Part shown: in pieces, positions 12,355 to 48,130 of the stretch | How positions within the stretch are numbered: the stretch's first letter is position 1 | Layout of the letters: each line of letters opens with the position of its first letter | Source: Hyaloperonospora brassicae | Taxonomy: Eukaryota; Oomycota; Peronosporomycetes; Peronosporales; Peronosporaceae | NCBI GenBank assembly: GCA_947650285.1 | Contig: CANTFL010000363.1 | Location: 399,883 to 463,882 of the forward strand | Direction: 5' to 3' | DNA length: 64,000 bases | Translations under genes and position numbers: made by a program | Notes under the pieces: generated by a model | What the model was told of the DNA's origin: nothing | Databases searched by the model: none | What the model saw: only the letters and a program-made list of their open reading frames with translations

Positions 12355-12380
12355 TCACCCCCCCCCCGAACTGATGGCCA

Positions 12381-13685: not shown

Positions 13686-13796
13686 GTGTCACTGTTTGAC
13701 TATCGAATTTCGGGGACCACCCGTTGGAAATTATTGGGACTGAAACACTTGTTTGGTGAGATTCATGCATACCTGACCTTGCCTCGCATAGTTAGC

Positions 13797-15312: not shown

Positions 15313-15330
15313 TGCTAGCTGTATCTGTTC

Positions 15331-15750
15331 TCATAAAAGGACTCGTACTTTATCACGAGCGGATACGACCAAAATAAAACGTAGGATGCGTGCGCATCCT
15401 GCTAGCCAACTCAATCGTGTATTCATTGGCTTGCGGTGCGATACACGAAACGAGCCAATGTATTTTGGCAGTAGTTTACAAAGGCCAACATCAGTGACTG
15501 TATTTCCGGGTAGATTTGCCATAGATAGTATTGCTAGATCGTTAATCTTAAACGGAAGAACATTTGCTCTTCCATTCTTGTCTACGTTATCTTTCTGGCG
15601 TTCCACCGCATTCGCTATAAAGTCCTTGACGAAACGGACTACCGCCTCTCGAGTCAGCAGATAGTTCTCTGCTGACTCGTTCTTTTGTCTTTCAGTGCGC
15701 TTTGTGCGCACTGCTAAGATATTCTTCTCTTCTTCAGCGAAGGTGTACAC
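15331..15750 (-). pseudogene. T2 integrase C-terminal region
   Basis: Contains ESAENYLLTREAVVRFVKD, then NKNGRANVLPF-like sequence and KLLPKYIGSFRVSHRK, matching T1 at 40909-41230. This is the small SH3-like domain that follows the integrase core in chromodomain-containing Ty3/Gypsy elements and helps bind DNA. The frame fails after the RVSHRK segment, before any chromodomain. Confidence 0.8.
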
Positions 15751-15864
15751 TTACTCGCTGACATAATCTTTGGCTATGCTGAATATTTTACCATCGTCAT
15801 TAGTGTTTGATGTAGCATCAGCGTCATCGCTACTGCTAAGATCAACTTCTTTGATGTCGATATT

Positions 15865-15916
15865 ATCGACATCGACATCGACATCGACATCGACATCGAC
15901 ATCGACATCGACATCG
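15865..15916 (-). repeat. Hexanucleotide microsatellite ATCGAC
   Basis: About eight to nine tandem copies of ATCGAC. On the coding minus strand this reads as alternating Asp-Val codons and expands the acidic linker between integrase core and C-terminal domain. T1 has an unexpanded, irregular Asp-rich linker at the same place (about 40720-40790). Confidence 0.9.
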
Positions 15917-16089
15917 AACGCATCGACATGTGCGATAATACGTGATGAGCAGGAGCCAAAACGGTTTTTGCTTGAGCGCGTCCCTTCTCCCTTAACCCAG
16001 AGTCACTCTGCATTGAGGCGGGAATACGTGGGTGGCGGAAGCTATTCACTTAAAAAGGTGTATGCGTCGTGGACGCATACACGGAGTTT

Positions 16090-16738
16090 TTGATGGAGAA
16101 TTCGACCATCGGCAAGAACTCACCTTAAACTCGAAAAGGCGTAGACGTGTTCTCGAAGTATTATTTTGAGGAAACGGTTTGCACGTTTTTTCTGACCACT
16201 CGTTCCGGGATGGTCAGAAGTGGACAGTTTCAACCGTGTTCCCAATGTGCGGAACACGGATTGCCAAAACTCCACCGTGATCCGAGAGTCACGGTCGGAT
16301 ACGAGTTCCCAAGGTAAATTGTGGAGTCGAAATATCGTGTCAATTATGACACGCGCACAGCCTTGAGCCATTATCGACTCGGGGATCGCAGCAAGACGCA
16401 CCATTTTGCTGAAACAGTTTACATACACAATAATACCATAGTAGTTGTGAGTGGCTTCGGGAGACCTGAAGACAAAGACCATGGAAACGGACTCCCAACA
16501 TACGCCGAGGTTGCAATGGTGCACAGGATGAAGGACTAGGCTTCACCCGTTGACAGACCTCGCTTCAAAAATGGACTTGAGTACAAACTCATACTGGAGA
16601 GGCCAGTAAAGGTCATGACTTACCAATAGAAATACTTTTCCTTATCACGATGCTCGCCGGTTGGGGCATCGTGACATTCGAACATGATGTGCAAGCGCAA
16701 CTCCGCATGATCGGGAACGACGACACGAGGTGTGTGTT
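16090..16738 (-). pseudogene. T2 integrase core
   Basis: The minus-strand ORF 16120-16524 has SVSMVFVF (position of the first catalytic Asp region), LVSDRDSRITVEFWQ (second Asp) and STSDHPGTSGQKKRANRF, where T1 has a Glu in 'GEMERANRV' and T2 has Lys. The third acidic residue is therefore lost in this copy. Upstream sequence to 16738 carries the His/Cys zinc-binding region up to the insertion at 16739. Confidence 0.8.
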
Positions 16739-17262
16739 AGTGAGTGATGTTGCGGCGACATGTGCAGGATGTATATTGCATATTAGCTTAGTTGTATTGT
16801 TCCTTGGCACGGTTATATTGTGGGATGTTAGCGATATCGACGGAGCAATAGATTGTCTCAGTCGTTTGGGAAGGGGGATTCCAATCAGGTGAGTGCGGGT
16901 TTGAGTCCTGTCGTGTGCAAATTAATTGTGACTCATACTCACGACCTGGTGTTTGGGGTTCACGGGAGCTGCGGCCCACCCGCAGTTACGCCCCCCACAA
17001 CCACGCAACCGTTTTCATTATGCATATGACGAAGCAGGATTTTTACCAAAGGTATATTACGAGACGTGAATACACAGTGATAGGTAAAACAAAAAGCGGT
17101 GGAGACAGGGCACGAAATCGTTGGCTGAGAGTCACCGGCTTCTACCAGCCATTCGTTTTTGGAGATAAGGACAACATAAATACAACTCTTTTTTCGGTTT
17201 TGATGTCCGACCGTAAGCCGTCTTCTTCTTCGCAAAAGCTCCATAGCCTAGTTAAATTCTAT
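16739..17262. mobile_element. Insertion of about 520 bp in the T2 integrase, SINE or solo-LTR candidate
   Basis: T2 integrase homology stops at 17262 and resumes at 16738. T1 has the two sides joined. On the minus strand the insert begins TGATAGAATTT and ends CTAACA, and it is bordered by ACACG/ACACA-like 5-mers, compatible with a target duplication. Inside, GGTTTGAGTCC (16898-16908, plus) fits the pol III B-box consensus GGTTCGANTCC, which suggests a tRNA-derived SINE. The TG...CA ends would instead suggest a solo LTR. I found no second copy in the window. Confidence 0.5.
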
Positions 17263-18159
17263 CATCGTGTCGTGGGCAACCACTGTATAGTACATCAGAC
17301 CATTGCGACTTGTATATCGATCTAAAGAGGAATGGTATAGATCTGAGAAATCTGACAATGATTTCCGGTATGGGTTCGCAGGATGATCCATAAAAGAGAA
17401 GAGATTCGTACCTCCTGCGTTTGCCTTCCGCACGTCGTCGAGTAAAGGCGACGACGGCACACTTGCTAAAGCGCCGAAACAGTGATCTTGTCTTCATTTT
17501 TGACGCGTGTCGTCGGCTCGAAATAGGGCTGACATGATAGCGCATCAGCAACGACTTTAAATCGTCCTGGTATGTACTCCGTGGAAAGGTTATACTTTGC
17601 GAAGATAGAGAAATACCTCGTTATTCGAGGTGATAGGTGTTGACATTTTACGGTTGTGCGTAGTGACGCATGGTCCGTCTAGACAAAGAGCGGTCAATTC
17701 TTTGAGAGGTCGACGCGAAGCTTAGCCAGTGCGTACTTCATGGCAAGGAGTTACTTGTCATGGACTGGATAATTACGCTTAGCTGGTTGCAGCTGACGCG
17801 ATTGATAACAGATGACGCGCTCTGTGCTGTCTTTGTCATACTGCATCAACGCACAGCCGATTGAGTTATCACTGGCGCCACAGACTACATGGGATAGTTC
17901 TGTCCTTATCTACAATCGCTAAGATGAGCGATTGAATCTAGCTTTTCTCTGTGCATGCATAGGAACGGTAAAAGTCAGCGTTTTATGACCACTTCACATT
18001 TTTCTTAAGCAAAAAAAATATGCACGATCATTTCGGCATAGTTGCGCGAGTAATTGTGCAAGTACGCCGCTAATCCAAGATACTTCCGCAGGCTTTAGAT
18101 ATCGACTGGCACGGGGCAACCAGTGATCGCCTTATCTTCTCGGGATCAAGGCGTACGCC
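17263..18159 (-). pseudogene. T2 RNase H and start of integrase
   Basis: Degenerate minus-strand sequence collinear with T1 39020-39900. The piece 17248-17460 contains SPLLDDVRKANAG, SSLDRYTSRNGLMYYTVVA, matching the inter-domain segment between RNase H and integrase in T1. RNase H itself is recognisable only in fragments, such as YLGLAAYLHNYSRNYAEM in the connection just ahead of it. Confidence 0.7.
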
Positions 18160-18910
18160 TTATTTACCCACGATGCACCCCAGATGTGGTATTTTGGTAG
18201 CCGCGAATATATACTTCTTGAGGTTGGCGTACAACTTATGCATCCGCAAGAATTGAAGAACCTGGCGAATGTGAGTTTTATGAGCTTCAACGTCTGTCAT
18301 CCCGTCCATAGCCGGGCTATGGATGGACACATCATCAGAGTAACTCGGTGCGAAATCTCGCACCGGTCGTAACAGATTTGTGACACATCTGTTGTATGTT
18401 GCAGGGGCATTACTCAGCCCCTGTGGCATCTCTCGCCACACTCAGACAAAATACCTCTGGAGGTGATCACTGCTGTGTACGTGATGTTCCGTTCAGGCGT
18501 AAGGATCGGATAGTAGCCATCCGTCAGATCCATGGACGAGAAGATGGTACTCGTTGATATACCATCTATGATTACGTCCTTCGTCGAAATCGGTGTCTGA
18601 GCGGTACCGTTGCAGCATTCAACGTGTTTAATGCGTGCACTATCCGCCATCCTCCAGTACCCTTTTACACACAGAAGGTCCTAAATCTGATAGGAGCTGT
18701 TGATTTTTTCACATGAACCGCTGCAAAGCGATCGTCAAAGAACTTGTCGATCGCTAGTACTTGTTCACGAGGCAGTGGCCACTGCTTCATGACACAATAC
18801 TTCGAGCCCGGTTTGAGCTCGATCTCGCGTCCAGTGCCATTGTCCTTAGGCAACTCGCAAGACACGGATTCAGAAAACACATACTTGAATTCGATAAAGT
18901 CCTTATACAA
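18160..18910 (-). pseudogene. T2 reverse transcriptase
   Basis: Pieces at 18665-18910, 18414-18650 and 18160-18441 cover the RT fingers, palm and thumb. They include ELPKDNGTGREIELKPGS, the SMDLTDGYY block, QGLSNAPATYNRCVTNLL and the active-site region, here SYSDDVSIHS (T1: SYFDDVFVHS). A 2-bp TG duplication at 18438-18441 throws the frame just before QGLSNAP, at exactly the same place as in T1. Further stops are present, so RT is inactive. Confidence 0.85.
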
Positions 18911-20012
18911 AGGATTTGCCTGAAGCGATCCCAGGGTTGAAACGTGTATCGCTTAATGCAAGCCTTTTCCTCGAGGATGCTTTCGTCCATCGATGAACTG
19001 ATGAGAACTCGTTCGGTCCCAGTAAACTCCATTGCTGATTAAATATTGATGACGTACTCGTCCTCCGCGACGAGTAGAAAGATTTGATTGACTTTGTTAC
19101 GACGCAGATCACAAAGAATCGTTTCGGTTCTAGTGGTGGCAATTGAGTTATCTCCAAATTAAACTTCGGAGGCGCAACCAGACCAAGTGTATACGCACCG
19201 ATACTTGGTCCGTCATTCACCAAGACGTTCAACGTCTCGGTTTCTTTCTGGGAGATTGTTTCCACAGGTTCATGAGGGACTAATCCCTGAGCATGATAAT
19301 AGTGAGGAATTCCTTTAAAAAGTGTGGACTTGCTCCTCCACGTCTTCTGACTGAAGCTATAAAATTACAGTCAGGTCTCGACCCCTTAAGGTCGACATTC
19401 CAGTCGACCTAGGACGATTGTTTTTCCCTTTGGCGGCATCCGGTTTCTTTCTTCGAGGATGTTGCCCGCTAGGCATACATCCATGTCCCGGCCCACTCGA
19501 CTTATTCGAGAGGTGGACCTTTGCCATTGCCTGTACTTCTGACTAGCCATCAGCAGCTTGTTCTACATGGTAGTGATCAATTACACTGATATATTGTGCA
19601 GTCTTGCGAACGGCCGTACCGCAAGTGAGGCCATCGCACTCACTCGCAATACATCCACACGCTTGTGGACGCTTCAAGACGTTCATCAGATAGATATTTG
19701 ATGAATAAGCGGCAGGCATCTTTAATAATCGACTCTGCCAGCTCACTCTTGTCTTGTACCTTTTGAGCCAAGGCAATTATAGAATGACATTGAAAACGTT
19801 CATTCAGATTCAATAGGATGTAGTCATAATCGTACTATTTGCCCTCTTAAACGTGTAGTGGATTCCTACTACGCGTTTCACAACGGTTACCCATACGCTT
19901 GTGGCCAGGAGCACCGTCATCCTGGTCAGGGGGATGTCGCACTCAACAAAATTGAGCCTACGACCCTCTAGTGACTGGCGGTGAACAAACTTGGTCGACG
20001 CCCTACAGTCAA
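18911..20012 (-). pseudogene. T2 protease and linker
   Basis: Minus-strand fragments 19543-19776 (CGCIASECDGLTCGTAV) and 18903-19265 (ETLNVLVNDGPSIGAYTLGL) match the T1 segment downstream of the retropepsin fold. The beginning of the protease lies inside the inverted segment 20013-20575. Confidence 0.75.
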
Positions 20013-20575
20013 CGAGTCAGGAACTACTTGTTCCGATTAAATCTAGATAGGTTTGAACAAACAATCGCAGAGGCGGAACAGGAAGACTTAAGCATGAGCC
20101 TGTCTCATGCTAGTCCGAGCTCTTATGTTCCGCCGAGGCGACAAAAGACTGGAGCTTTTGAACCCATGGACATCTGTGGTATTGAAAGAGAGAGACCTCA
20201 TTTTTCAAACAATAAGCGATTGTAGAAATGCAATCGCTGTCAGAAGCTAGGTCACGACGCGTACGGGAGTAGTGCCCCACGACCAGTACCAAATAGTACT
20301 GTGCAAAATGGTCGTCCATTTGTTTAAATATGCAATGGGCGTGGGTCCACGCTGTTGCGAAGCCGCAAGAGCGAAGCGTACCATCAAAAAATGGGCGGGT
20401 CAGTAAAGGCGGAGCGCTCTACTGATTCAGCAACCTCAAGAGAATGTGCAAATCTCTCGACGAAATTTGCTTTAAATACACAATCATTGTGTGTTTCCGC
20501 ACCTTGTGATGAGATATCACTCATAACCTTGAAGGAAGAAGTGAGAAATAATATGTTACTTCGTGCCCTTCTTAA
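20013..20575 (+). other. 563-bp internal inversion within T2
   Basis: On both sides T2 reads on the minus strand. Here the gag C-terminal and protease N-terminal region reads on the plus strand: NYLFRLNLDRFEQ, the zinc-knuckle remnant CNRCQKLGHDAYG, then TQSLCVSAPCDEISLITL and RALLN. The outer strands rejoin the T1 order exactly at both breakpoints (T1 about 36600 and about 37165), with almost no sequence lost. Within the segment the protease Asp position is Asn, as in T1. Confidence 0.85.
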
Positions 20576-21340
20576 CCCTTGCATGAGCCCAGTAATCAAC
20601 GTTTAATCATGTAAAGGGTAGCAGTTATACTATTCGCGAGGAGTCGTAAATGCTAAGCATAATCGTGCACAACACTCTTACCCTGTTTAATATTCAGGAG
20701 CTCAAATCGAGCCCTGAACGCTGCCCGAGGCGGTTCAAACGTCTGTTTGAGCCGGGTCTTATAGGCTTCTAGCGCAATAATAGCGTATGGGGAGCTCATC
20801 TCGAGCCCTAAGGCCCAAGTCTTAACACGTCCTACCAAGTGACGTTGAGAAAATGTAAGTATCATTTGCTCATTGTCAATACGACGTGACTATATGGCTC
20901 TGTTTAGTTCGACGAACCATAATAACAGAGAGTCTTACTCGACTCCTCTGTGCTTGGAGATATCAATCCTCAAGATTTCGGGACGACGCGTGTGTGTCCT
21001 CCCGCCCACAGCAGCATTGAATTTCTGCTGTCTGGACAGCTCTGTCTGTTGAGCACCGAGTTCTCTCAACTGCTCGGCCTATTGAGAGCCTTGCGGGTAA
21101 AGCAAGGCTACTTTACCTTTAAGCGGCAAGTTCTTTTTAAATGACCCTAACTATAGCGGCATGTTGTTGGTACCTGTCAAGGGACTTCAACACGGTGCTA
21201 ATAGCGGTTTGCCGACAGTGGTCACTTATACGTTCTACCACCCTCTATCGATGTCACTCAATGAATTAAGGCTTCACGCGTAGCTTTAAATCTCTCCTCC
21301 CCATCCAACATGTTCATGTAGGATGAGAAGTTGTGGTCGC
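20576..21340 (-). pseudogene. T2 gag N-terminal part
   Basis: The ORF 20653-20865 contains LTFSQRHLVGRVKTWALGLE and KTRLKQTFEPPRAAFRARFE, the retrotransposon gag core seen in T1 residues 150-215. Upstream, on the minus strand, the Gln-rich N-terminus and the start region are present but frameshifted. Gag packages the genomic RNA in virus-like particles. This copy cannot make it. Confidence 0.8.
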
Positions 21341-21366
21341 TGGAAGGACCACAAAGTGCTACTAGG

Positions 21367-21798
21367 TGTCAAGGGGCACGCCTTGTGCTCATTCAACACA
21401 AGGTTGCGTGCACTCGACGTACCATACACATGGATTGAGGAAAATCAGCAAAGTAGGCAGAGCCTAAAACTCTAAGGGAAAAAGTAGAAATGAATTTAAT
21501 ATAGTTATGTTCCCTAATAAACCATCTTTTGTCTTGAGCTAACTGTATTAAACTACAATCTCATATGTGGGTTTTGAGCACTACCCATTGCGCGCATTTA
21601 GCAGCGATTTGTGGTTAATCTGGTTGATGTACCCGGTACATCAACCACGAATTGGAGCACCCAGAATATCACCCTCGGGGTGTATTCGTCGCCAATATCA
21701 CCTCTAGTCGGGCTATGTTTATTGAATATTGTCTTAAAGATAGTGTTTAAAAATTGATACATTCGTATCAATTATATGTAACGGAGTCATTCCGTAAA
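21367..21798 (-). repeat. Family T LTR, 5' LTR of element T2
   Basis: On the plus strand it starts TGTCAAGGGGCACGCC at 21367. The primer-binding complement (caaagtgctactagg) lies just outside at 21352-21366, matching the CCTGGTAGCACTTTG that follows the 5' LTR of T1. It contains perfect hairpins of 9 bp (AATTGATAC with GTATCAATT, 21752-21773) and 12 bp (TGGTTGATGTAC with GTACATCAACCA, 21621-21647) at positions equivalent to hairpins in T1. Confidence 0.8.
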
Positions 21799-29905: not shown

Positions 29906-30362
29906 TGAAACGGGGTGAACCCGTTACATAAAATTGAGATCAAACTGTTTAAATTTTTGAATACTATCTATCTATATTTAATCAACATTACCCGAGAAGA
30001 GGTAATGTAGGCGCAATAATAACCCCGAGGGTAATATTCTTGGGTGTTCCGCTTATTCGTTGATGTATACGCTGCATCAACTTAACTAATTTCCGATCTA
30101 TTCTATACGCGTGCATTGGGTAGTACGCAAGCATTCACATAGGAGATTGTACTTAAATTTAGTTTGGTTAAGGCAAAGATGGTTTTCCAAAAAACATTCC
30201 TATATATAATACAGTTTTATTTCCTCTCAGACGGAGCTTCCGAGTTCTGTTTAATTCTTCGCTCTTCCTCACGCTACGTGTACGTGACGTCGGGAGTACG
30301 CAGCCTTGTGTTCTAATAATACAAGGTCTTACCATTTATCTGGTAAGAGCGAGTTCGTTACA
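29906..30362 (+). repeat. Family T LTR, 5' LTR of element T3
   Basis: 457 bp, TGAAACGGGG to GTTACA. The sequence CCTGGTAGCACTTTG follows immediately and serves as the presumed primer-binding site, as in T1. Hairpins at equivalent positions include ACATTACC with GGTAATGT and GTTGATGTA with TGCATCAAC (one wobble pair). Confidence 0.85.
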
Positions 30363-30377
30363 CCTGGTAGCACTTTG
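30363..30377 (+). promoter_or_regulatory. Presumed primer-binding site of T3
   Basis: CCTGGTAGCACTTTG directly follows the 5' LTR. The same 15 bases follow the 5' LTR of T1 (35794-35808), and a close match adjoins that of T2. The likely tRNA primer begins pairing at TGG. I cannot name the tRNA. Confidence 0.6.
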
Positions 30378-30417
30378 TCGTCCGTCCAGATACCTTAATT
30401 ATCTCATCCGACATGAA

Positions 30418-31442
30418 CATATTTGATATGGAGGAATGATTCCACGCCACGCGTTAATGCTCTATTCATGTGAGTGACATCAAATAAAAGGCGGTACAAC
30501 GAAAAAGTCCTACCGGCGGCAAAACCGCCATTAGCGCCATGTTGAAGTCCCTTGACAGGGACCAACAACATGCCGCTATAGTAAGGTTCATTTAACATGA
30601 ACTTGTCGCCGAAAGAGAAAAGAATCCATGATTTACCATCAAGGATCTCAATAGGCCGAGCAGTTGAGAGAACTCAGTGCTCAACAGACAGAGCTGTCCA
30701 GACAGCAGAAATTCAATGCTGCTGTGGGCGGGAGGACACACACGCGTCGTCCCGAAATCTTGAGGATTGATATCTCCAAGCACAGAGGAGTCGAGTAAGA
30801 CTCTCTGTTATTATGGTTCGTCGAACTAAACAGAGCCATATAGTCACGTCGTATTGACAATGAGCAAATGATACTTACATTTTCTCAACGTCACTTGGTA
30901 GGACGTGTTAAGACTTGGGCCTTAGGGCTCGAGATGAGCTCCCCATACGCTATTATTGCGCTAGAAGCCTATAAGACCCGGCTCAAACAGACGTTTGAAC
31001 CGCCTCAGGCAGCATTCAGGGCTCGATTTGAGCTCCTGAATATTAAACAGGGTAAGAGTGATGTGCACGATTATGCTTGGCATTTACGACTCCTCGCGAG
31101 TAGTATGAGTGCTAACCCGGTAAAACACACACGTTGTTTACTGTGTTCATGCAAGGGCTTGCAGATGGTTCCGTCAAGAACCACCTGTTCCGCTTAGTGC
31201 TGGATACGCTTGAACAAGCATTATCAGCTCCGGAACAGGGAGACTTTAGCAAGCGACAGGCTCATACAAGCTCAAGCTCTTATCGCCCACCGAGGCGACA
31301 AGAGACTAAAGGTCCAGAACCAATAGATCTAGGTTATGTTGAGAGCGATAGACCTCGCTCTTCAAACAACAAGGGATTGCAGGAGTGCAATCGCTGTCAG
31401 AAGCTAGGAAACTACGCTTACGAGTGTAGTGCCCACGCTTAG
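30418..31442 (+). pseudogene. T3 gag
   Basis: Collinear with T1 gag. The start codon equivalent is ATA rather than ATG and the N-terminus is frameshifted. From 30868 the core reads LTFSQRHLVGRVKTWALGLE and KTRLKQTFEPPQAAFRARFE. A frameshift near 31125 moves to the frame 31134-31442 (FMQGLADGSVKNHLFRL, then the zinc knuckle CNRCQKLGNYAYEC in which the conserved His is Asn). Damage in the start, the frame and the knuckle makes the copy inactive. Confidence 0.85.
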
Positions 31443-32577
31443 TCCAAAACAGTACTGAGCGAAATAAATGACCATTTGCCAAAACGGGCAATGGGCGTAG
31501 GTCTAACGCTGTTGCAAAACCGCTACAGCGAAGCGGACTATTAAACAATTTTCGGGGTCTATAGGGGCGGAGCGCCGTACTGATCCAGAACCTAATGGGA
31601 AAATGCATATTTTTTGACGAAAGTAGATCCAGATATACAAATATTGTGTGCTTCTACATTTGATAATGGGATGTCACACATCACGTCCCAGTTGCGAGTG
31701 ATAAAATATTTGTCACCTCGTGCTCTCGTTGAATTTGGAACGTCGAACGACTTTGGTCGTCGCCAGTCACTAAAGGGTCGTAGGTCTAACCTTATTAAGC
31801 GCTGCATCCCTTTAACAAGGATGAAGGTGCACCTTGCCACAGGCGCATAGATTACCGTTAAGAATCGAGTAGTGGAAATCCACTACACGTTAGAGGGCTA
31901 ACAGGACGATGATGACTTCATCGTACTGATTCTGGATGACAAATTTGATGACATCCTGGGATTACCTTGTTACAGAAGGTACGAGCCAAGGTTGAGCTGG
32001 CTGCATCGATCCGTGAAGATGCCTGCCGCCTGTTCATCAGATGGCCCTCTGACGTATGTCATGGAGCGTCCACGAGCGTACGAATGTACGGCAAGGGCGT
32101 GAAATGCCTTCACTTGCGAAACGGTCGTTGGCACGACTGCACAAGACCTCAGTGACGCTAAGCATCACACTGTGGAGCAAGCTCCCTGCGGCTGTACAGA
32201 ATAACAGGTAGCGCCGAGGGTAAACCACTCGAAAAAGCGCACGGACCAGGACATAGATGCTCGCCTAGCGGGCAACATACTACGACGAGCAAACAAGTTG
32301 TATACAAACGACAACGCGGTTATCCTAGGTCGACTGAAGAGTCGACCGCAGAGGATCGCTACCTGACTGTGGGTGCACAGCCATATTAATAGGACGTCGA
32401 AGGAATAAGTTCCCACGTGCTGGAGGAACAAATTTTTAAACTATTACGGGCCTAGGAATAAGGCTCTCAGCAACCTAAGCGAACAAGCCCTCAGCAGCCT
32501 GCGGAAACAAGCTACCAAGATGGTAGTAATACATTGAACGTTTAGTCAATGACGGATCAAGCGTAAGCGCATATACT
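31443..32577 (+). pseudogene. T3 protease and linker, cut by G2
   Basis: Reads LVEFGTSNDFGRRQSL where T1 has LVNCGASNNFVRRQSL, so the catalytic Asp position is Glu here. It continues through HYTLEG and VILGLPW-like sequence (here DILGLPC) with several stops. Homology to T1 ends at T1 37985 equivalents (AAGCGCATATAC), where the G LTR begins at 32578. The T3 RT and integrase are not found in the window. Confidence 0.8.
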
Positions 32578-35403: not shown

Positions 35404-35793
35404 TGTAACGGGGCAGCCCGTTACATGAAATTGTCACTTTAAGGAAAGTGACAATAAAGAATATAAAGATGGATATTCTTTAAACAATATCACCAAAGCG
35501 GTGATATTGAAGGGTAGACCAAAGGGTCTGTTCATTGGTTGATATCGTGATGATATCAACCCACCAATCGCCGCAAGACGCGCGCAATGAGTGGTGACGA
35601 GACGTCACCATACATGCAGGTATATTAGTATAATTGAATTAAGTCAAACGAAGAGACAGTAGTTTAAAGACTTAATTTATTAATATAACAGTTCTACTTT
35701 TACCCTACCTACGCTTCCTCGCTCGCCACGTGTACGTCCGTCGGGGCACCCAAATCCCTTGCGTTAAGTTACGCAAGGGTGTGCCCCGTTACA
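35404..35793 (+). repeat. T1 5' LTR
   Basis: TGTAACGGG...CCCGTTACA, 390 bp. The first 22 bp are themselves a hairpin. Perfect 10-bp stems follow at 35431-35454, 35485-35509 and 35537-35561, a GTGACG/CGTCAC stem lies in mid-LTR and a 9-bp stem at 35756-35779 (CCCTTGCGT with ACGCAAGGG) near the 3' end. The promoter and R region should lie within, but I cannot place them. Confidence 0.95.
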
Positions 35794-35808
35794 CCTGGTA
35801 GCACTTTG
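35794..35808 (+). promoter_or_regulatory. Presumed primer-binding site of T1
   Basis: CCTGGTAGCACTTTG immediately after the 5' LTR, identical in T3 and nearly so in T2. It contains the TGG expected opposite a tRNA 3' CCA end, two bases from the LTR. Confidence 0.6.
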
Positions 35809-35843
35809 TAGTCCTTCCAAGGACCACATCATCCAACATAAAC

Positions 35844-36992
35844 ATGTTGGATGAAGAAGACACCTTTCACGCCACGCGTGAAGGGTTTACCCATTTGAGT
35901 GACATCGAATGGGGTGCGGTAGAACGAATGAGTTCTACCGTAGGCGAACTCGTCGTCAGCACCATGTTGGAGTCTCTAGACAGAGACCAACAACATGCTG
36001 CTATCGCCAAGTTCATTCACAATGAACTTGCTCTCGAGAGGGAGAAAGTAGCCTTGCTTCACCAGCAAGGCTCTCAACAGGCCGAGCAGTTGAGAGAACT
36101 CGGTGCTCAACAGACGGAGCTGTTGAGACAGCAGCAATTCCATGCTGCTGTGGGCGGGACGGCGCATGCGCGTCGTCCCGAAGTGATGAAAGTCGACATC
36201 TCCATGTACAGTGGAGTCCCGGAGGACTCCCTGTTACTATGGTTTGTCGAACTCGACAGAGCCCTAAGGGCTCGTCGCGTCGAAGATGAGCAAATGAAAC
36301 TCACATTTGCTCAGACCCACTTGGCAGGGCGTGCCAAAACTTGGTCCCTGGGACTCGAGAGTAACGATTCAAACGTGTTTAGGTCGCTAGATGACTTCAA
36401 GTCCCGGCTCAGACAAACGTTTGAGCCGCCACGTGCTGAGTTCAGGGCTCGTTCAGAGCTCCTGAAACTCAAGCAGGGTAAGCGTGATGTGCACGCTTAC
36501 GCACAACATATACGACTCCTTGCGACTAGTATAACTGCAAACCCAGTTCATGAACACACGTTGATTACGGTGTTCATGCAAGGGCTCGCAGAAGGGCCCG
36601 TCAGGAGCCACCTGTTCCGCCTTGAGCTGAATACGCTTGAAGAAGCGATATCAGCCGCGGAACAGGAAGACTTTAGCATGAGACAGGCTCATGCTAGCTC
36701 AAACTCTTACCGTCCACCGAGACGACAAGAGATCGGAGGTCCAGAACCAATGGACCTCTGTTATGTTGAGAGCGAGAGACCTCGCTCTACAAGCAACAAG
36801 CGATTGCAGAGGTGCAATCGCTGTCAGAAGTTAGGGCACTACGCATACGAGTGTAGTGCTCCGCGCCCAGTACCAAACAGTACTGAGCGAAATGGACGAC
36901 CATTCGCCAGAAAGGGCAATGGGCGTGGGTCCAGCGCTGTTGCGAAGCCGCAACAGCGAGACGGACTATCAAAAAATGGTCGGGGTCAGTAG
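35844..36992 (+). CDS. gag: T1 gag polyprotein (382 aa), intact
   Basis: Structural protein that assembles the virus-like particle and binds the genomic RNA. The ATG at 35844 lies 50 bp after the LTR and is the first in this frame. Residues about 60-105 are Gln/Leu-rich and likely coiled coil (ALLHQQGSQQAEQLRELG). The retrotransposon gag core is at about 128-230 (LLWFVELDRAL, LTFAQTHLAGRAKTWSLGLE, RLRQTFEPPRAEFRARSE). The zinc knuckle is C324-x2-C327-x4-H332-x4-C337 (CNRCQKLGHYAYEC). The frame ends at NGRGQ and protease follows in another frame, so pol expression in an ancestor would have needed frameshifting or separate initiation. No stop or frameshift lies within gag, in contrast to pol downstream. 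Confidence 0.92.
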   Translation: MLDEEDTFHATREGFTHLSDIEWGAVERMSSTVGELVVSTMLESLDRDQQHAAIAKFIHNELALEREKVALLHQQGSQQAEQLRELGAQQTELLRQQQFHAAVGGTAHARRPEVMKVDISMYSGVPEDSLLLWFVELDRALRARRVEDEQMKLTFAQTHLAGRAKTWSLGLESNDSNVFRSLDDFKSRLRQTFEPPRAEFRARSELLKLKQGKRDVHAYAQHIRLLATSITANPVHEHTLITVFMQGLAEGPVRSHLFRLELNTLEEAISAAEQEDFSMRQAHASSNSYRPPRRQEIGGPEPMDLCYVESERPRSTSNKRLQRCNRCQKLGHYAYECSAPRPVPNSTERNGRPFARKGNGRGSSAVAKPQQRDGLSKNGRGQ

Positions 36993-38096
36993 GGGCGGAG
37001 CGCCCTACTGATCCAGCAACCTCAAGAGAATTTGCAAATCTCTTGACGAAAGTTGCTCCAGATACACAGTCATTGTGTGTCTCTGCACCTGGTGATGACG
37101 TTTCGCTCATCACCTTGAAGTTGGAAGCGACAAATGATTTGTCGCTTCGTGCCCTAGTAAACTGTGGGGCGTCGAACAACTTTGTTCGTCGCCAGTCACT
37201 AGAGGGTCGTAGGCTCAAGTTCGTTGAGCGCGACATTCCCCTCACAAGGATGACGGTGCGCCTTGCAACAGGCGCATCGATAACCGTTGAAGAAACGTGT
37301 AGTAGGAATCCACTACACGTTAGAGGGCGAACAGTACGATGATGACTTCATCGTACTGGATCTGGATGACAAATTTGATGTCATCCTGGGATTACCTTGG
37401 CTCAGAAAGTACGAGCCAAGGGTGAGCTGGCAGCATCGATCCGTGAAGATGCCTGCTGCTTGTTCATCAGATGGCCATCTGATGAACATCTTGGAGGGTC
37501 CACAAGCGTGTGGATGTTCTGCGAGTGAGTGCGATGGCCTCACTTGCGGTACGGTCGTTAGCACGACTGCACAAGGTCACAGTGTAGTTGATCACTACAC
37601 TGTCGAGAAAGCTCCCGGCGGCTGTACAGGAGTACAGGCTGCGCCGAAGGTCCACCACTCGAAGAAGTCGAGTGGACCGGGACATGGATGCATGCCTAGC
37701 GGGCAGCATCTTAGAAGAAATAAACCTGTTGCCCCCAAGGGGCAACATGAAAATCCTAGGTCGACTGGAGAGTCGACCGTAGAGGATCGGTTCCTGACTG
37801 TGGTTGCACAGCCACAGTCGGAAGACGTCGAGGGAATAAGTCCCCACGTACTTGAGGAAGGAATTCCTCAAGAGTTGCTTGCTGAGGGATCAGGCCCTCA
37901 GCAACCTGTGGAAGCAAGTTCCCAGGAAGAAACCGAGACGTTGAACGTCTTGGTTAATGACGGATCAAGCGTAGGCGCTTATACGCTTGATCTGATTGTG
38001 CCTCCGAAGTTGACTTCGGAGATAACTCAGTTGCCAACGCTAGAACCGAAACGGTTCTTGCGTGATCTGCGTAGTGGCAAAGTCAAGCAGATCTGA
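36993..38096 (+). pseudogene. T1 protease and linker, frameshifted
   Basis: Retropepsin-like aspartic protease that would cut the polyprotein. The frame 37043-37342 has RALVNCGASNNFVRRQS; the catalytic Asp expected in the 'D-[STC]-G-A-S' motif is Asn (codon 37160-37162). A +1 insertion near 37287, visible by alignment with T3, moves the reading into the frame 37287-38096, which continues HYTLEGEQYDDDFIVLDLD, then FDVILGLPWLRKYEPRV (the second conserved block) and a long low-similarity linker. A TGA at 38094-38096 interrupts the way to RT, because the same frame continues open beyond it. Protease activity is very unlikely. Confidence 0.85.
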
Positions 38097-39772
38097 ATAC
38101 TCGTCACAGAGGACGAGTATGTGACCGACATTCGGTCGGCAACAGTATTTGCTGAGAACGAACGGGTTCTCAGCAGCTCATCGATGGACGAAAGTGTCCT
38201 CGATGAGAAGACTCGGATTGAGCGATACGCGTCCCAATCCTGGGAGTCACTTCAGTCAAATCCTTTGTATAAGGATTTGATCGAATTCAGGGATGTGTTC
38301 CCTGAATCCGTACCTTGCGAGTTGCCTAAGGACAAAGGCACTCGACACGAGATCGAGCTCAAACCGGGCTCGAAATACTGTGTCATGAAGCAGTGGCCAC
38401 TGCCTCGTGAACAAGTGATAGCGATCGACAAGTTCTTTGCCGATCGCTTAGCAGCGGGCCATGTGAGGGAATCAACGTCCCCTCACAGCTCTCCGACCTT
38501 CTGTGTGCGAAAGGCCACAGGAGGGTGGCGGATAGTGCACGCATTCAACAAATTGAATGCTGCAACGGTACCGGCTCAGACGCCGATACCGAGGAAGGAC
38601 GTAATCATAGATGGTATGTCAAAGAGTACCATCTTTTCGTACATGGATCTGATGGATGGATTCTATCATATCCTTATGCGTGAACGGAACATCACGTACA
38701 CAGCAGTGATCACCTCCAGAGGTATTTTGTCTGAGTGTGGCGAGAGATGTCACAGGGGCTGAGTAATGCCCCTGCAACATACAACAGATGTGTAACAAAT
38801 CTGTTGAGACCGGTGCGAGACTTCGCACCGAGTTACTTCGACGATGTGTTCGTCCATAGCTGGGCTATGGACGGGAAGACGGACGTTGAAGTTCACAGAA
38901 CTCACGTTCGTCAGGTTCTTCAACTTATGCGCAAGCATAAGTTGTACGCCAACCTCAAGAAGTGTATATTTGCGGCTAGCGGAATACCACTTCTTGGGTG
39001 CATCGTGGGGAAGCACGGCGTACGCCCTGATCCCGAAAAGATCAAGGCGATCACCGACTGGCCAGTGCCAATCGATGTCAAGGGACTAAGGAAGTTCCTT
39101 GGTCTTGCGGCGTACTTGCACAAGTACTCGCGCAACTACGCCGAGATGACTGTTCATCTTTCTTGCTTGCTCAAGAAAAATGTCAAGTGGTCATGGAACG
39201 CTGAGTGCCAGCGTTCCTTTGAAGGTATCAAGCAAAGCTTGATGCAATCGCCGATCTTGGCGATTGCAGATCAGGACAGACCATTTCATGTGGTCTGTGA
39301 CGCCAGCGATTTCGCAATCGGCTGTGCGTTAATGCAGTTCGATGCAGATGGCGCGGAGCGCGTCATCTGTTATCAGTCGCGTCAGCTGCAAGCAGCTGAG
39401 CTTAATTACCCAGTGCATGACAAGGAACTCCTTGCCATGAAATACGCACTGGCTAAGTTTCGCGTCTATCTCTTGGGAGATAGACCGTTTGTTGTCTACA
39501 CGGACCATGCGTCATTACGCACGGCCGTAAACAGCCCACACCTCTCGCAAAGAATGGCGAGGTGGCTGTCTTTCTTCGCGGAGTATAACTTCTCCGTGGA
39601 GTATAAACCGGGACAACTCAATGTCGTCGCGGATGCTCTTTCGCGCCGGCCCGATTTCGAGCCGGACGCACAATCCAACAGTGAGGATAAGCCCACTGTT
39701 GCGACACTGTCAGTCAGTGTCCCGTCGTCAAGTTTACTTGACGACGTACGAAAGGCATACGCGGAAGATTAG
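38097..39772 (+). pseudogene. T1 reverse transcriptase and RNase H, frameshifted
   Basis: RT copies the RNA; RNase H degrades the template. The first frame (38121-38762) has ELPKDKGTRHEIELKPGS, KQWPLPREQVIAIDKFF, a GGWRIVHAFNKLN block and SYMDLMDGFYHI. A TG duplication at 38736-38739 then breaks the frame. The second frame (38735-39772) has MSQGLSNAPATYNRCVTNLL, the active site SYFDDVFVHS, the connection KFLGLAAYLHKYSRNYAEM, and RNase H with VVCDASDFAIGCALMQ, NYPVHDKELLAMKYALAKFR and VVYTDHASLRT. A TAG at 39770-39772 ends it (AYAED*DLLRL) although the frame continues on the far side. The catalytic residues are kept, so decay is recent in sequence terms. Confidence 0.9.
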
Positions 39773-40906
39773 GATCTTCTGCGATTGATGGATCATCTGG
39801 TGAATCCATCCAGTAAATCCATGAGGGATTTACCGGCTTTGTACAGATCCTCATCGGATCGGTATAGTACACGCAACGGATTGCTGTACTATACAGCTGT
39901 TGCCGACGACACGCCTCGTGTCGTCGTACCCGCTCATCATGATTTGCGATTGCGCATCATGTATGAGTGTCACGATGCCCCAACAAGCGGCCATCGTGGT
40001 GGAGAAAAGACTTACCTCACGGTAAGTCGCGACTTTTACTGGCCCCGCCAGTATCAGTTTGTTCGCAAGTACATCCGTGCTTGCAAAGTTTGTCAACGGG
40101 TGAAGCCTAGTCCTTCATCCCGTGCGCCATTGCAGCCTCTGGGTGTTCCGACAGAGTGCTGGCAGTCCGTTTCAATGGACTTCGTCTTCGGGTTTCCCGA
40201 AGACGCTCACAAGAATAATGGTATTCTTGTGTTTGTAGACCGATTCAGCAAGATGGTCCATCTTGCTGCTGTCCCTGAGTCAATCAAGGCTCAAGGTTGT
40301 GCTCGTGTCTTTCTAGACACGGTCTTTAGACTCCACGGGTTACCCCGTGAACTCGTATCCGACCGTGACCCTCGGTTCACGGCGGAATTTTGGCAAACCG
40401 TGTTCCGTACTCTCGGAACACGATTGAAGATGTCCACTTCTGACCATCCCGAAACATATGGTGAGATGGAACGTGCGAACCGTGTCCTAGAAGAGATCCT
40501 TCGAGGATATGTCCACTCGTTTCCGAGTTGGAGCGAATTCCTACCCATGGTGGAACTCGCCATCAATAATTCGGTGCATGCTTCCACACAGCACACACCG
40601 TTTTACGTGAATGGCCTACGCCATCCACGAGTGCCCACTCTTATAGAGTGTGACTCTTGGATAAGGGGGGAGGGACTCGCTCGAGCAAAAACCGTTTTGG
40701 CTCTTGCTCATCACGTGTCGACGTTAACGTCGTCACGTATGATGCAGATGTCGATTAAGTCGACATCGATGAAGAAGATCATCTCAATAATAGCGACGAC
40801 GCTATTATTGACTCGGATGATGACGATGCTGGTATATTCAGCATCGTCAACGATTATTCCAGCGAGGAAGAAGACAACCTCGCTGAAGAAGAGAGCAATC
40901 TCTTAG
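39773..40906 (+). pseudogene. T1 integrase, zinc-binding and core domains
   Basis: Inserts the cDNA into the genome. The N-terminal His/Cys zinc-binding domain is at about 39950-40105 (ECHDAPTSGHRGGEKTYL, then CKVCQRVKPSPSSRAPLQP). The core has SVSMDFVFGFPEDAH (first Asp), LVSDRDPRFTAEFWQ (second Asp) and STSDHPETYGEMERANRVLEE (Glu). The frame is lost near 40670 in a G-run (ggggggagggac): the ORF continues out of frame into KTVLALAHH, whereas T2 keeps the frame into an Asp-rich linker. In that proper frame a TAA follows at 40756-40758. Confidence 0.9.
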
Positions 40907-40908
40907 CA

Positions 40909-41885
40909 GTGCGCACGAAGCGCACTGAAAGACAAAACAAAGAGTCAGCAGAGAACTTCCTGCTGACTCGAGAAGCGGTAGTCCGTTTCGTTCAGGACTC
41001 CATCGCAAATGCGGTGGACCGTCAGAAACGGAACGCAGACAAGAATGGAAGAGCAAACGTTCTTTCATTTAAGGTTAACGACCTAGTACTACTGTCTACG
41101 CTAAACTTACCTGGACATGCAGTCACTAGTGTCGGCAGTAGTAAACTACTGCCGAAGTACATTGGGCCATTTCGAGTGTTGCATCGCAAGGGCAATGCAT
41201 ACACACTCGAATTGCCACGTAGGATGCGCACACATCCTACGTTTTACGTGGGGAGGCTTAGGTCGTACTGTCAGTACGAGCCTTCTTCTTCCGATGAAGA
41301 TAGCCCCCACGTTCAAGAACATCCATCAAGTTCTTGCGTTCGCGCTCCAGACGATCCGTCTGGTCGCGCAGATATGATACCTCGGTATTCAACCGAGATA
41401 TCTCCCCGCGAGCTGTCGCCAGCTCGCCGAAAAGGAGCGGACATCCCGCTCGACCTGAAGCTGCGCCGTGGCATAATCGGCGCGATCCCTCGCCCGATCA
41501 GCCTCGTGACCCTTGCGGTTCTTCCGCACGGTGTCGGTCAAAGCGTAGCGTCGGTCGCGCTCGTGCTTCAAGTCATCGCGCAATTCATCGATTGCGCGAT
41601 CCATCTCGTAAGGGTCGAGATGGTGGGCCTGGGGTTCTGGAGGAGGTCTTTCCTCCTCCACCACATCCTTTGGTGGATGCTCACGGTGATCAACGCTTTC
41701 TAGTGGAGCGTATCTTGAATCACCGTGACGATTCAGGATCAAGGACGAGCTACCTCGTCCAGTGGCGGGGGTATCCACCCTCTTGGAACAGCTGGGAGCC
41801 CCGCTCTCAGCTGTTGATGGATGTTGAAGGTCTCGTCCGCCAGTATGACGAGACCCATCCGATGAGTCCTGTGGCCCATCGGTAA
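40909..41885 (+). pseudogene. T1 integrase C-terminus and chromodomain, frameshifted
   Basis: The first part (40909 to about 41330) has ESAENFLLTREAVVRFVQD, KNGRANVLSFKVNDLVLLS and KLLPKYIGPFRVLHRKGNAY, the SH3-like DNA-binding domain after the core. The second part (to 41885, different frame) holds a chromodomain at about 41690-41865: RFLVERILNHRD, SYLVQWRGYPPSWNSWEPR, then LVRQYDETHP. Chromodomains of this type are thought to guide integration by binding modified histones. One indel near 41400-41430 would account for the frame change. The region is overlapped on the other strand by the antisense ORF. Confidence 0.85.
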
Positions 41886-42861
41886 ACACGCGCCCAAGGC
41901 GCTTGTAGACGGATTGCAAGTTTGCAATCGCGTCACGCATCTCAGCCGAGATGTGTGCCCTTCCCCAGGGCGAATTTAGGGAGTACACATCCCTATGTGC
42001 ACGCTGCGAGTTGTCAACACAACTCGCACAAGGGTCTCCCCATGTGAGGCAAGGAATTCCTGCCTCACTAGATAAACAATGCAACCGGTACCTAGCACCG
42101 GTTGGCGTTCGCCGTTCGAACCTGAGGCGTGTTGCCTCAAGTTTCTTGAGCCACCCCTCTCGTCCAAAATTCTTGACGTTTTGGACGAACGCGTTCCACG
42201 CAGCCAAAAGCGATGTTTTGTCACGCTTTTGGTTGCTGTTGTACCATCGATGTCTAAGGAAGACATCGAGATACAAATCTTCTTCAGCGCGAAAGTTCTT
42301 CGCGCTGGAACTCAAGCCGTGAAGCTCGGTTGCATCGAATAAGGGTATTCGATGGTGTTGGCCTGTCTCGTGAGACAGGCTATTGATGAGTTGTTCGGGC
42401 AAACGCCACGGCTTCAACTCATCACGCTTCACAGTGGTATCCTTGTCGGTACCACGGCTCCCAGATTGACGACGGCTCGCGCCATCGTCATCACGCTCGT
42501 GCGAAGACGCACGAGCCGGCGGTGGTGAAGAATAGAACTCACCACCCTGATCATCGTCATCACTGCCGAACAGACTGTGATGCGAATCACGAGTCCGTTC
42601 GTTCGGCAGTGGTCTTGGCGAATACTGAGGCGTAGCCGGTGAGCGAGACGCCTCTGGAGCATTGGCCGAGTCAGACACGTTTGACTCGCCAGAGTAGATG
42701 ACCTCCACATCGGGGTCATCGTGCGCACGCGGCGTGATACCGCGTGCACCTGCAGCACCTGTTGCTGCAGGCGAAGAAGGGGCGGCAGACGCTTCGTCGT
42801 CTGCCGCAGAGGCTTGCACAGCACCAGGCTGTGTGGGTCTTGAGTCACCTCGCATAGACAT
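41389..42861 (-). CDS. T1 antisense ORF (490 aa), function unknown
   Basis: Runs opposite to gag-pol, from an ATG at 42861 (about 130 bp inside the 3' LTR) to a stop at 41389. Residues 1 to about 325 lie in sequence with no sense domain; the rest is antisense to the chromodomain region. N-terminal 150 residues are Ala/Ser/Pro/Asp-rich and probably disordered. A globular part with DELKPWRLPEQLINSLS, AAWNAFVQNVKNFGREGWL and TPTGARYRLHCLS follows, then a Cys-containing motif CLTWGDPCASC, then SPWGRAHISAEMRDAIANLQ, and a charged C-terminal helix (AIDELRDDLKHERDRRYALT) that looks like coiled coil. It is open for 490 codons while pol is broken, and T2 has the same frame with protein-level similarity. 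I know of antisense ORFs at this place in some plant Gypsy elements; I do not recognise this protein. Confidence 0.75.
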   Translation of the reverse strand: MSMRGDSRPTQPGAVQASAADDEASAAPSSPAATGAAGARGITPRAHDDPDVEVIYSGESNVSDSANAPEASRSPATPQYSPRPLPNERTRDSHHSLFGSDDDDQGGEFYSSPPPARASSHERDDDGASRRQSGSRGTDKDTTVKRDELKPWRLPEQLINSLSHETGQHHRIPLFDATELHGLSSSAKNFRAEEDLYLDVFLRHRWYNSNQKRDKTSLLAAWNAFVQNVKNFGREGWLKKLEATRLRFERRTPTGARYRLHCLSSEAGIPCLTWGDPCASCVDNSQRAHRDVYSLNSPWGRAHISAEMRDAIANLQSVYKRLGRVFTDGPQDSSDGSRHTGGRDLQHPSTAESGAPSCSKRVDTPATGRGSSSLILNRHGDSRYAPLESVDHREHPPKDVVEEERPPPEPQAHHLDPYEMDRAIDELRDDLKHERDRRYALTDTVRKNRKGHEADRARDRADYATAQLQVERDVRSFSASWRQLAGRYLG

Positions 42862-42991
42862 GTTAACTATGCGAGGTCAAGAGGAAAGTGAGTGGAACGG
42901 ACCAAACAAGTGCTCCCTGTCCCAATGGTGGCCAACGGGTGGCCTCCATATTTCGATAGTCACACGGTGACTATCAGTTAAAGGGGGGTGA

Positions 42992-43381
42992 TGTAACGGG
43001 GCAGCCCGTTACATGAAATTGTCACTTTAAGGAAAGTGACAATAAAGAATATAAAGATGGATATTCTTTAAACAATATCACCAAAGTGGTGATATTGAAG
43101 GGTCGACCAAAGGGTCTGTTCATTGGTTGATATCGTGATGATATCAACCCACCAATCGCCGCAAGACGCGCGCAATGAGTGGTGACGAGACGTCACCATA
43201 CATGCAGGTATATTAGTATAATTGAATTAAGTCAAACGAAGAGACAGTAGTTTAAAGACTTAATTTATTAATATAACAGTTCTACTTTTACCCTACCTAC
43301 GCTTCCTCGCTCGCCACGTGTACGTCCGTCGGGGCACCCAAATCCCTTGCGTTAAGTTACGCAAGGGTGTGCCCCGTTACA
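42992..43381 (+). repeat. T1 3' LTR
   Basis: 390 bp, identical to the 5' LTR except at two positions (a C/T in the loop of the CAATATCACC hairpin and an A/C in GGGT[A/C]GACC). The tract AAGGGGGGTGA precedes it. Confidence 0.95.
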
Positions 43382-44800: not shown

Positions 44801-45179
44801 CTTTGTTTAAATCGTCTAGATGATACATTTTCCTCGACCAGGTCACTTACAGATCTAATCGCTCGCGATTTAAGTCTTTAATATCTTGATTTCCTAAAAT
44901 CAAAGTATTTGCCGACTATACCATGATCAGATCATCCACAGTGTCGATCGATCGCGATCAAAGTTTTATCGATCCTGATAACTGGCTATCAAAACTTATT
45001 TCCGACTTTTACCTGCGCGATTATCTCTGTAAACTCTTGTTTGCTCTATTCACAACAAATACCACCCTTCCACATTCTCATACAACCCGTCTATGTGATC
45101 CTTCCATCCTCGTATTCACCCTCCTTGCCTCTCACCTCAAATCTTACGGTCTAAACATCACTAACCCGCATCACCTTCT

Positions 45180-45850: not shown

Positions 45851-46186
45851 AATGTGGCTTCCAACGTTGATCGGGGGTCTTATCCGTGGATCAAATTAAA
45901 CGTAGTGTCCCCGCGAACCTGATCGGGTGCGGTGTTGATCGCGTATGTCATTCGTTCGACATTTAACCCCAGTATTATTGATTATCGTCCGAAACATACA
46001 TCTTGATCGCTCAAGTAAGCGTCTTCACCATGCGCTCTGCTTTGCCGTTTGCTGGTGGTAGATAAGCCATGGTATCTCATATATTATGTTCCACGATTCG
46101 ACTAAACTCACAAAATACATCAGACATGAATCCTGGCTCTCGTTCGAGATAAATTGCTTACTCGCACTAAACCTTCTAAATACGCG

Positions 46187-47974: not shown

Positions 47975-48130
47975 CCCCATCAATTGGGTGCGATTCCCGA
48001 TTACATAAACATCGAATGCAATTTCTGATCGCCCTTAAAACCTAAGTGCAATTTTTGGTCGCCCCAGGGATTAGATGCAATACCTGATCGCCCTCAGAAA
48101 TTGGGCACCGATCGTGATCTCCCTTCTGGG
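47975..48130 (-). repeat. Short degenerate tandem repeat within G1
   Basis: About three to four copies of an element of 30-38 bp with the core TGCAATTTCTGATCGCCC, spaced irregularly. It falls between RT and integrase and has no evident coding sense. Confidence 0.55.

What the first reader, a model, noticed from the sequence alone, without database searches (positions are those of the whole stretch)
35404..43381. A retrotransposon built almost continuously from short perfect inverted repeats
Reading T1 from end to end, nearly every 25-40 bp holds a perfect inverted repeat, in gag, pol, the antisense gene and the LTRs alike. Examples: 36478-36500 (9-bp stem GTAAGCGTG), 36800-36821 (9 bp), 36935-36958 (10 bp CGCTGTTGCG), 37294-37321 (10 bp), 37332-37358 (11 bp), 37579-37603 (10 bp), 37963-37992 (11 bp), 40784-40811 (12 bp), 41132-41155 (11 bp), 42005-42028 (10 bp), 42285-42307 (9 bp), 42333-42354 (9 bp). 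I saw several dozen such stems, far beyond what chance would give for 9-12 bp stems with short loops. Older copies T2 and T3 show many of the same sites with mismatched arms. Possible causes, all inference: reverse-transcriptase template switching that perfects quasi-palindromes at each cycle; selection for compact RNA for packaging; or a structured RNA that evades or feeds silencing.
Basis: seen in the sequence. Interest (0 to 1): 0.92.

Follow-up and report, generated by a model that had tools for sequence, protein, structure and literature searches.

The report
Retrotransposon packed with perfect hairpins
A young, abundant jumping gene of a downy-mildew-like microbe carries over a hundred short perfect hairpins inside its protein genes and end repeats and keeps them nearly unchanged by selection, perhaps to shield its RNA from the host.

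Summary
T1 (35404-43381) is a Ty3/Gypsy LTR element with 107 perfect stems of at least 8 bp (71 of at least 9), against 1.9 (0.6) in dinucleotide shuffles. Codon-preserving shuffles of an intact sister copy give 1.7 against 59 in pol. Host DNA (0.66/kb), one Copia piece (0.80/kb) and one other Ty3 piece (0 in 1.8 kb) lack it. Twenty sister copies carry 116-119 stems each. Folding energy lies about 45% below shuffles on both strands; a survey of structured RNA viruses gives 23.4% as its highest (PMC7642675).

Between two hairpin-rich subfamilies stems diverge 3.1%, loops 10.6%, flanks 9.6%; at third codon positions 4.4% against 15%. So selection keeps the stems.

Best reading: the genomic RNA is selected to fold into discrete 8-11 bp hairpins that shield it. 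The shielding is inferred. Strand evidence is mixed: loops are A-rich on the sense strand, but G-U pairs are not clearly better tolerated than A-C.

The parts
35404..43381 (.). T1 element and its hairpin array: 107 perfect stems >=8 bp, loop <=15, in LTRs, gag, pol and antisense gene
35404..35793 (+). 5' LTR (390 bp, TGTA...TACA)
   Evidence: self match
42992..43381 (+). 3' LTR, 2 differences from the 5' LTR in 390
35844..36989 (+). gag (Retrotrans_gag, Ty3_capsid; weak zinc knuckle below Pfam cut-off)
37287..38093 (+). pol fragment with aspartyl protease (RVP_2); pol frame is broken in T1
38735..39769 (+). pol fragment: reverse transcriptase and RNase H
39785..40903 (+). pol fragment: integrase (H2C2, rve core)
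40909..41700 (+). SH3_Tf2-1 domain, integrase C-terminal part
41389..42861 (-). antisense ORF of 490 aa, no Pfam match; hairpins continue through it (18.6 per kb in L006)
42782..42807 (.). hairpin whose 6-nt loop is exactly inverted in T1 and L018 against 19 other copies
35485..35509 (.). LTR hairpin whose innermost pair is A-T, G-C or A.C in different copies (compensation seen in progress)
37461..37488 (.). longest stem: 14 bp without loop, in pol
13688..21433 (-). T2, old relative, 72-81% identical in pieces, decayed hairpins
30356..32576 (+). T3, old relative, 78% identical, decayed hairpins

Best explanation
T1 belongs to a young, high-copy Ty3/Gypsy family of a Peronosporaceae-like oomycete. 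Shown: in coding and non-coding parts alike the element is filled with about 115 discrete, almost non-overlapping hairpins with perfect Watson-Crick stems (mode 9 bp, loop 4-5 nt), far beyond what its protein sequence and codon content require, and the stems are conserved against loops and flanks, also at synonymous positions, as expected of purifying selection on the active lineage. Inferred: the folding molecule is the full-length genomic RNA, and the short hairpins shield it: they leave fewer long accessible stretches for small-RNA-guided cleavage, favour self-folding over sense-antisense duplex, and are too short for Dicer, as proposed for genome-scale ordered RNA structure in persistent RNA viruses. 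Template switching across the palindromes probably helps to create stems or compensations but does not by itself keep them.
For: Array destroyed by synonymous shuffling. Stem vs loop vs flank divergence 3.1/10.6/9.6% between L006 and L034; none of 2000 bootstraps and none of 200 same-geometry placements (mean 9.25%, minimum 6.1%) reaches the stem value. Third codon positions 4.4/15.1/15.3%. Stem singletons among 20 copies (0.00081 per site per copy) equal the after-insertion rate from LTR pairs (0.00073), so almost no stem variants circulate; loops 0.0023. Paired replacements: 9 pairs between L006 and L034, 94 pairs with two or more Watson-Crick types over all subfamilies. Stem length peaks at 9, only 3 overlaps among 115. 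MFED 45% (+) and 48% (-). Loops A-rich on the sense strand, 0.336 vs 0.245 elsewhere, purines 0.59 vs 0.51, p 0.0001. Codon registers that leave third positions free to pair are preferred, 31 and 30 vs 14 of 75. Most small RNAs of the oomycete Phytophthora infestans map to transposons, predominantly LTR retrotransposons (PMC3522703, passages).
Against: G-U is not clearly better tolerated than A-C: one-mismatch stems 10 vs 10 in L006, young subfamilies 64 vs 70, copies 18 vs 42, stems with 1-3 wobbles 36 vs 25 in L006 and 29 vs 22 in L034. Intermediates of double transitions are A.C more often than G.T (3 vs 1 in the copies, 5 vs 2 in young subfamilies). Both strands are equally structured. Accessible gaps remain: of the gaps between hairpins with stems >=6, 34% exceed 25 nt. 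T1, with broken frames and 27 pairs lost against L006, still made a recent insertion. The purine excess in loops is not significant at pol third positions (p 0.26) nor in the antisense region alone (p 0.085). No small-RNA, probing or expression data.
Confidence: 0.5

Rival explanations
1. Mutational drive: reverse transcriptase (or replication) switches template at quasi-palindromes in each cycle, copies one arm onto the other, and so makes and keeps perfect stems without any benefit, as proposed for RNA genes and for Nematomorpha mitochondria.
For: One exact loop inversion. Strict Watson-Crick pairing with no clear G-U preference. 138 pairs gained against 16 lost towards young subfamilies. 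Some paired changes already within the 20 copies: 6 of 47 derived stem alleles are compensated.
Against: Neutral conversion lets stems evolve at the loop rate; they evolve about 3 times slower, also at third positions. No template-arm bias and no significant one-arm clustering. Only 1 inverted loop in 97 loop comparisons among copies and 0 in 312 among subfamilies. Stem length has a peak at 9 and hairpins rarely overlap. Imperfect hairpins are in excess too, unlike the binary pattern that PMC6649704 takes as a sign of conversion.
Confidence: 0.2
2. Structure of DNA: the hairpins act in single-stranded cDNA during reverse transcription or as cruciforms in the integrated copy, for example protecting cDNA or aiding its compaction.
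For: Strand symmetry of structure and of mismatch types. LTRs, which are the same in cDNA and RNA, are as dense as the rest (17.9 per kb).
Against: Loops are A-rich on one strand only, with the same direction in the antisense gene. Minus-strand cDNA structure would favour A-C (plus-strand letters), seen in the copies (42 vs 18) but not in the subfamilies (70 vs 64).
Confidence: 0.15
3. Dispersed packaging sites: Gag recognises many short hairpins by shape, so the genome carries about a hundred binding sites for assembly of the particle.
For: About 115 hairpins of similar size with variable loops over the whole element, A-rich loops on the sense strand, Gag with a weak zinc-knuckle match.
Against: No loop motif sought beyond GNRA, which is not enriched (2 of 20 four-base loops on each strand); loops are the fastest sites. 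No clear G-U tolerance. T1 with broken stems was still mobilised.
Confidence: 0.12

Closest known systems
Genome-scale ordered RNA structure (GORS) of persistent positive-strand RNA viruses (PMC7642675, passages seen)
   Same: Structure spread over the whole coding genome, far below the folding energy of shuffled controls, variable sites concentrated outside pairs.
   Different: MFED 45-48% here against up to 23.4% there; discrete perfect 8-11 bp stems conserved in place and by compensation here, pairings poorly conserved in position there; a retrotransposon of an oomycete.
Coding palindromes in Nematomorpha mitochondrial genes (PMC6649704, abstract and discussion read)
   Same: Many perfect inverted repeats inside functional protein genes, fitted by synonymous choice, with preferred codon phases.
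   Different: Up to 284 bp there and explained by arm conversion; short, many, with imperfect ones in excess, and conserved against loops here.
Template-switch mutation that creates and mends RNA hairpins (PMC8794818, abstract and discussion read)
   Same: Perfect stems, double compensations, rare loop inversions.
   Different: Slow evolution of the stems and no arm bias show that it is not the main maintaining force here.
Oomycete Ty3/Gypsy LTR retrotransposons (PMC5348765, passages seen; proteins)
   Same: Gag, protease, RT-RNase H, integrase; RT-RNase H 87% identical to a Peronospora effusa protein (89% of the query covered).
   Different: A term search of that paper finds no mention of hairpins, palindromes, inverted repeats or antisense genes; whether the relatives carry the array could not be tested for want of their DNA.

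Membership tests
Ty3/Gypsy LTR retrotransposon | LTRs with TG...CA ends and short target duplication | tested here: met
   TGTA...TACA in 20 of 20 copies; identical 5-bp flanks in 17 of 20, one mismatch in 1, none in 2; T1 itself has one mismatch
Ty3/Gypsy LTR retrotransposon | Gag and pol with protease, RT, RNase H, integrase in this order | tested here: met
   Pfam matches in T1 pieces; gag of 396 and an uninterrupted pol of 1339 codons or more in 16 of 20 copies
GORS (genome-scale ordered RNA structure) | Folding energy well below composition-matched shuffles across the genome | tested here: met
   MFED 45% (+), 31.6-54.0% in 11 fragments of L006, 4 shuffles each; codon shuffles of pol
GORS (genome-scale ordered RNA structure) | Structure acts as RNA (sense-strand signature) | tested here: inconclusive
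   A-rich loops on the + strand, but no clear G-U preference
GORS (genome-scale ordered RNA structure) | Carried by a positive-strand RNA virus and linked to persistence | tested here: not met
   It is a Ty3/Gypsy retrotransposon; persistence not testable. It works like GORS at most.
Palindromes maintained by arm conversion (template-switch drive) | Stems evolve by paired changes at the background rate | tested here: not met
   Stems 3.1% vs loops 10.6% and flanks 9.6%
Palindromes maintained by arm conversion (template-switch drive) | Strand-switch footprints: loop inversions, rewriting of one arm | tested here: inconclusive
   1 loop inversion in 97 comparisons among copies, 0 in 312 among subfamilies; one-arm clusters 14 of 35 vs 10.7 +- 2.5
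Anti-silencing RNA structure | Hairpin regions are poor sources or targets of small RNAs | not testable with these tools
   No small-RNA data of this organism

The most novel reading that the evidence does not exclude
The family won its burst of copies by evolving a genome-wide hairpin armour in its RNA, and in its complement, that defeats small-RNA silencing: a counter-defence written into synonymous sites and LTRs over the whole element instead of encoded as a suppressor protein.
Probability: 0.3. Interest if true: 0.95.

Novelty: new variant of a known kind. Interest (0 to 1): 0.86.

Why it matters
By the measure used for structured viral genomes this element is about twice as structured as the highest value that PMC7642675 reports. 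It shows that a whole protein-coding mobile element can be filled with near-perfect hairpins and held there. That makes a natural test case for whether pervasive structure protects RNA from silencing, packs it, or is left behind by strand switching, with young copies, decayed relatives and unstructured transposons in the same genome as controls.

Tried and rejected
Chance and composition: rejected by dinucleotide and codon-preserving shuffles. Assembly artefact: rejected, 20 other insertion sites carry the array, 16 of 20 with gag and pol open. One repeated palindromic motif: the stems differ in sequence (list). Regular spacing: centre spacing CV 0.65-0.69, which I judge close to random placement (no simulation run). 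GNRA tetraloops: 2 of 20 on each strand. Clear G-U preference of sense RNA: not found. Arm-directional conversion: not found. Relatives in viral contigs and genome contigs: none confirmed, so other species could not be compared at the DNA level. Literature: searches listed no paper on such hairpin arrays in a retrotransposon; the library holds open-licence papers only and I judged by titles and abstracts listed. The first stem/loop count defined stems on T1 and was biased; it was redone with stems defined on a copy left out of the count, on stems present in at least 11 of 20 copies, and with same-geometry controls. The codon-register preference fits selection and conversion alike.
Full report
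WHAT IS THERE. T1 is a full-length Ty3/Gypsy element with 390-bp LTRs, TGTA...TACA ends, gag, a pol with protease, RT-RNase H, integrase and SH3_Tf2-1 domains, and a 490-aa antisense ORF. The genome (100.6 Mb, 898 contigs, unnamed) looks like that of a Peronosporaceae oomycete: the RT-RNase H region is 87% identical to a Peronospora effusa protein over 89% of the query, and mostly about 60-73% to the Phytophthora proteins listed; rRNA identification did not complete. A protein search listed 117 matches at 96% identity or more (capped), so the family is large and young; the mean LTR-LTR difference in 21 copies is 0.15%, 12 differences in all.

THE OBSERVATION. T1 has 107 stems of >=8 bp and 71 of >=9 bp, against 1.9 and 0.6 in 40 dinucleotide shuffles with maxima of 6 and 3. 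Twenty sister copies carry 116-119, more than T1, whose pol frame is broken. In L006 synonymous shuffling destroys the array: pol 59 vs 1.7 (maximum 5 in 100), gag 16 vs 0.5, third ORF 15 vs 0.8. Density per kb in L006 is 17.9 in the LTR, 13.8 in gag, 13.7 in pol, 10.2 in the third ORF and 18.6 in the antisense-only part. Controls: 29 in 44.2 kb of the window outside T1-T3, 3 in 3.7 kb around a Copia RT, 0 in 1.8 kb of another Ty3; the two transposon controls are small. Among hairpins with stems >=6 the stem length peaks at 9 bp and the loop at 4-5 nt; among stems >=8 the commonest total lengths are 23, 26 and 24 nt, and only 3 overlaps occur among 115. Local folding energy per 100 nt of pol is -38.8 vs -25.1 +- 0.6 kcal/mol for 15 codon shuffles, and alike on the other strand. 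MFED on 350-nt fragments is 45% (+) and 48% (-) for L006, 42% for T1, 46% for the 92%-identical subfamily copy L034, 9-25% for the old copies T2, L033 and T3, 0.4% for Copia, 12% for the other Ty3, 5-10% for two host stretches (4 dinucleotide shuffles per fragment, every second fragment in the longer sequences).

SELECTION. Between L006 and L034, both hairpin-rich, stems diverge 3.1%, loops 10.6%, 10-bp flanks 9.6%; 200 random placements of the same geometry outside hairpins average 9.25% and never fall below 6.1%. At third codon positions it is 4.4%, 15.1% and 15.3% for stems, loops and the rest. [quoted passage not shown] columns in stems perfect in both differ in 10 of 1127, necessarily as paired changes. 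Against L043 the third-position values are 11.0%, 26.9% and 19.9% (stems defined on L006). Among 20 copies singletons per site per copy are 0.00081 in stems, 0.0023 in loops and 0.0013 elsewhere, while LTR pairs give 0.00073 for changes after insertion; so nearly all stem variants can be decay after insertion, and few circulate. T1 is an exception: compared with L006 its differences fall on stems as often as elsewhere (1.9% vs 1.4%, stems defined on L006), with 27 pairs paired only in L006 and 3 only in T1. With its near-identical LTRs it looks like a recent insertion from a defective source (inference). A lower mutation rate in stems instead of selection is not excluded, but stem singletons match the LTR rate, so it would have to act before insertion only.

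HOW IT AROSE. At sites where at least two old copies agree, 138 pairs went from unpaired to paired in the young subfamilies and 16 the other way, with 15 Watson-Crick to Watson-Crick and 549 unchanged. Old copies have decayed, so the gain is an upper bound. The changed arm is 5' 59, 3' 70, both 9. Hairpins with several perfecting changes have them all on one arm in 14 of 35 cases, 10.7 +- 2.5 expected. Transition mismatches resolved to G-C 46 times and to A-T 22 times. One hairpin (42782-42807) has its loop exactly inverted between copies, a footprint of interstrand switching that PMC8794818 calls very rare in rRNA. So strand switching takes part, but block copying of one arm is not the main signature.

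WHICH MOLECULE. Evidence is divided. For sense RNA: loops are A-rich on the + strand (0.336 vs 0.245) and purine-rich (0.59 vs 0.51, Fisher p 0.0001); the direction is the same in the antisense-gene region (0.57 vs 0.48, p 0.085) and at pol third positions (0.57 vs 0.50, p 0.26), where it is not significant alone. Stems with 1-3 wobbles are G-T slightly more often than A-C (36 vs 25 in L006, 29 vs 22 in L034). Against: single mismatches are 10 vs 10 in L006, 64 vs 70 in young subfamilies and 18 vs 42 in the copies (G-T vs A-C); the last excess may partly be mutation bias, since unpaired sites show G>A 54 and C>T 37. Both strands are equally structured. A role in both genomic and antisense RNA, or in cDNA, fits these facts too.

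HOW IT MAY WORK. Shown: conservation of stems as by selection. Inferred: folding of the genomic RNA into short hairpins shields it. In the oomycete Phytophthora infestans small RNAs of 21, 25/26 and 32 nt map mostly to transposons, predominantly LTR retrotransposons, and along the length of two Gypsy elements in both orientations (PMC3522703, passages seen), so a defence to be escaped exists in this group. That stems of 8-11 bp are too short for Dicer is general knowledge, not tested. Rivals are conversion drive, cDNA or cruciform structure, and dispersed packaging sites, each with its evidence in its own section.

COMPARISON WITH THE KNOWN. The closest kind by measure is genome-scale ordered RNA structure of RNA viruses (HCV 7.5-10.7%, SARS-CoV-2 about 15%, highest recorded there 23.4%; PMC7642675, passages seen), but the stems here are perfect, conserved in place and carried by a retrotransposon. 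The closest by anatomy are the coding palindromes of Nematomorpha mitochondria (PMC6649704, abstract and discussion read), which reach 284 bp and are explained there by arm conversion. Eight literature searches listed no such retrotransposon; the library holds open-licence papers only.

LIMITS. Other species could not be tested. No expression, small-RNA or probing data were at hand.

Noticed in passing
41389-42861 (-): Antisense ORF (490 aa, no Pfam match); an antisense reading frame of 492 codons or more is open in 19 of 20 sister copies. 13 protein relatives among the scored candidates: two of Peronospora matthiolae, 11 unnamed environmental.
   Followed up: partly
20016-20569: T2 holds an inverted internal segment of about 555 bp (T1 positions 1197-1752); the 93%-identical copy L032 is collinear there.
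   Followed up: partly
42434-42546: In this stretch of the antisense gene 5-6 copies share a clearly divergent haplotype, which suggests recombination between subfamilies.
   Followed up: no
L018 (C181:355150-363750): This copy on the window's own contig is the only one of 20 that shares the inverted loop of T1, and its pol is also interrupted.
   Followed up: no
35844-36989 and on; L006 399-6480: Gag and pol overlap by about 100 bp in different frames (399-1586, 1484-5500); a further + strand ORF (5248-6480) overlaps the end of pol and is fused to it in 2 of 20 copies.
   Followed up: no
44001-52000: Marked negative GC skew (-0.13 to -0.145) over 8 kb, almost no inverted repeats and no ORF of 200 aa.
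   Followed up: no
1436-1746 and 12053-12363: Two LTR fragments, 72-74% identical to the T1 LTR, in opposite orientation: older relatives.
   Followed up: no
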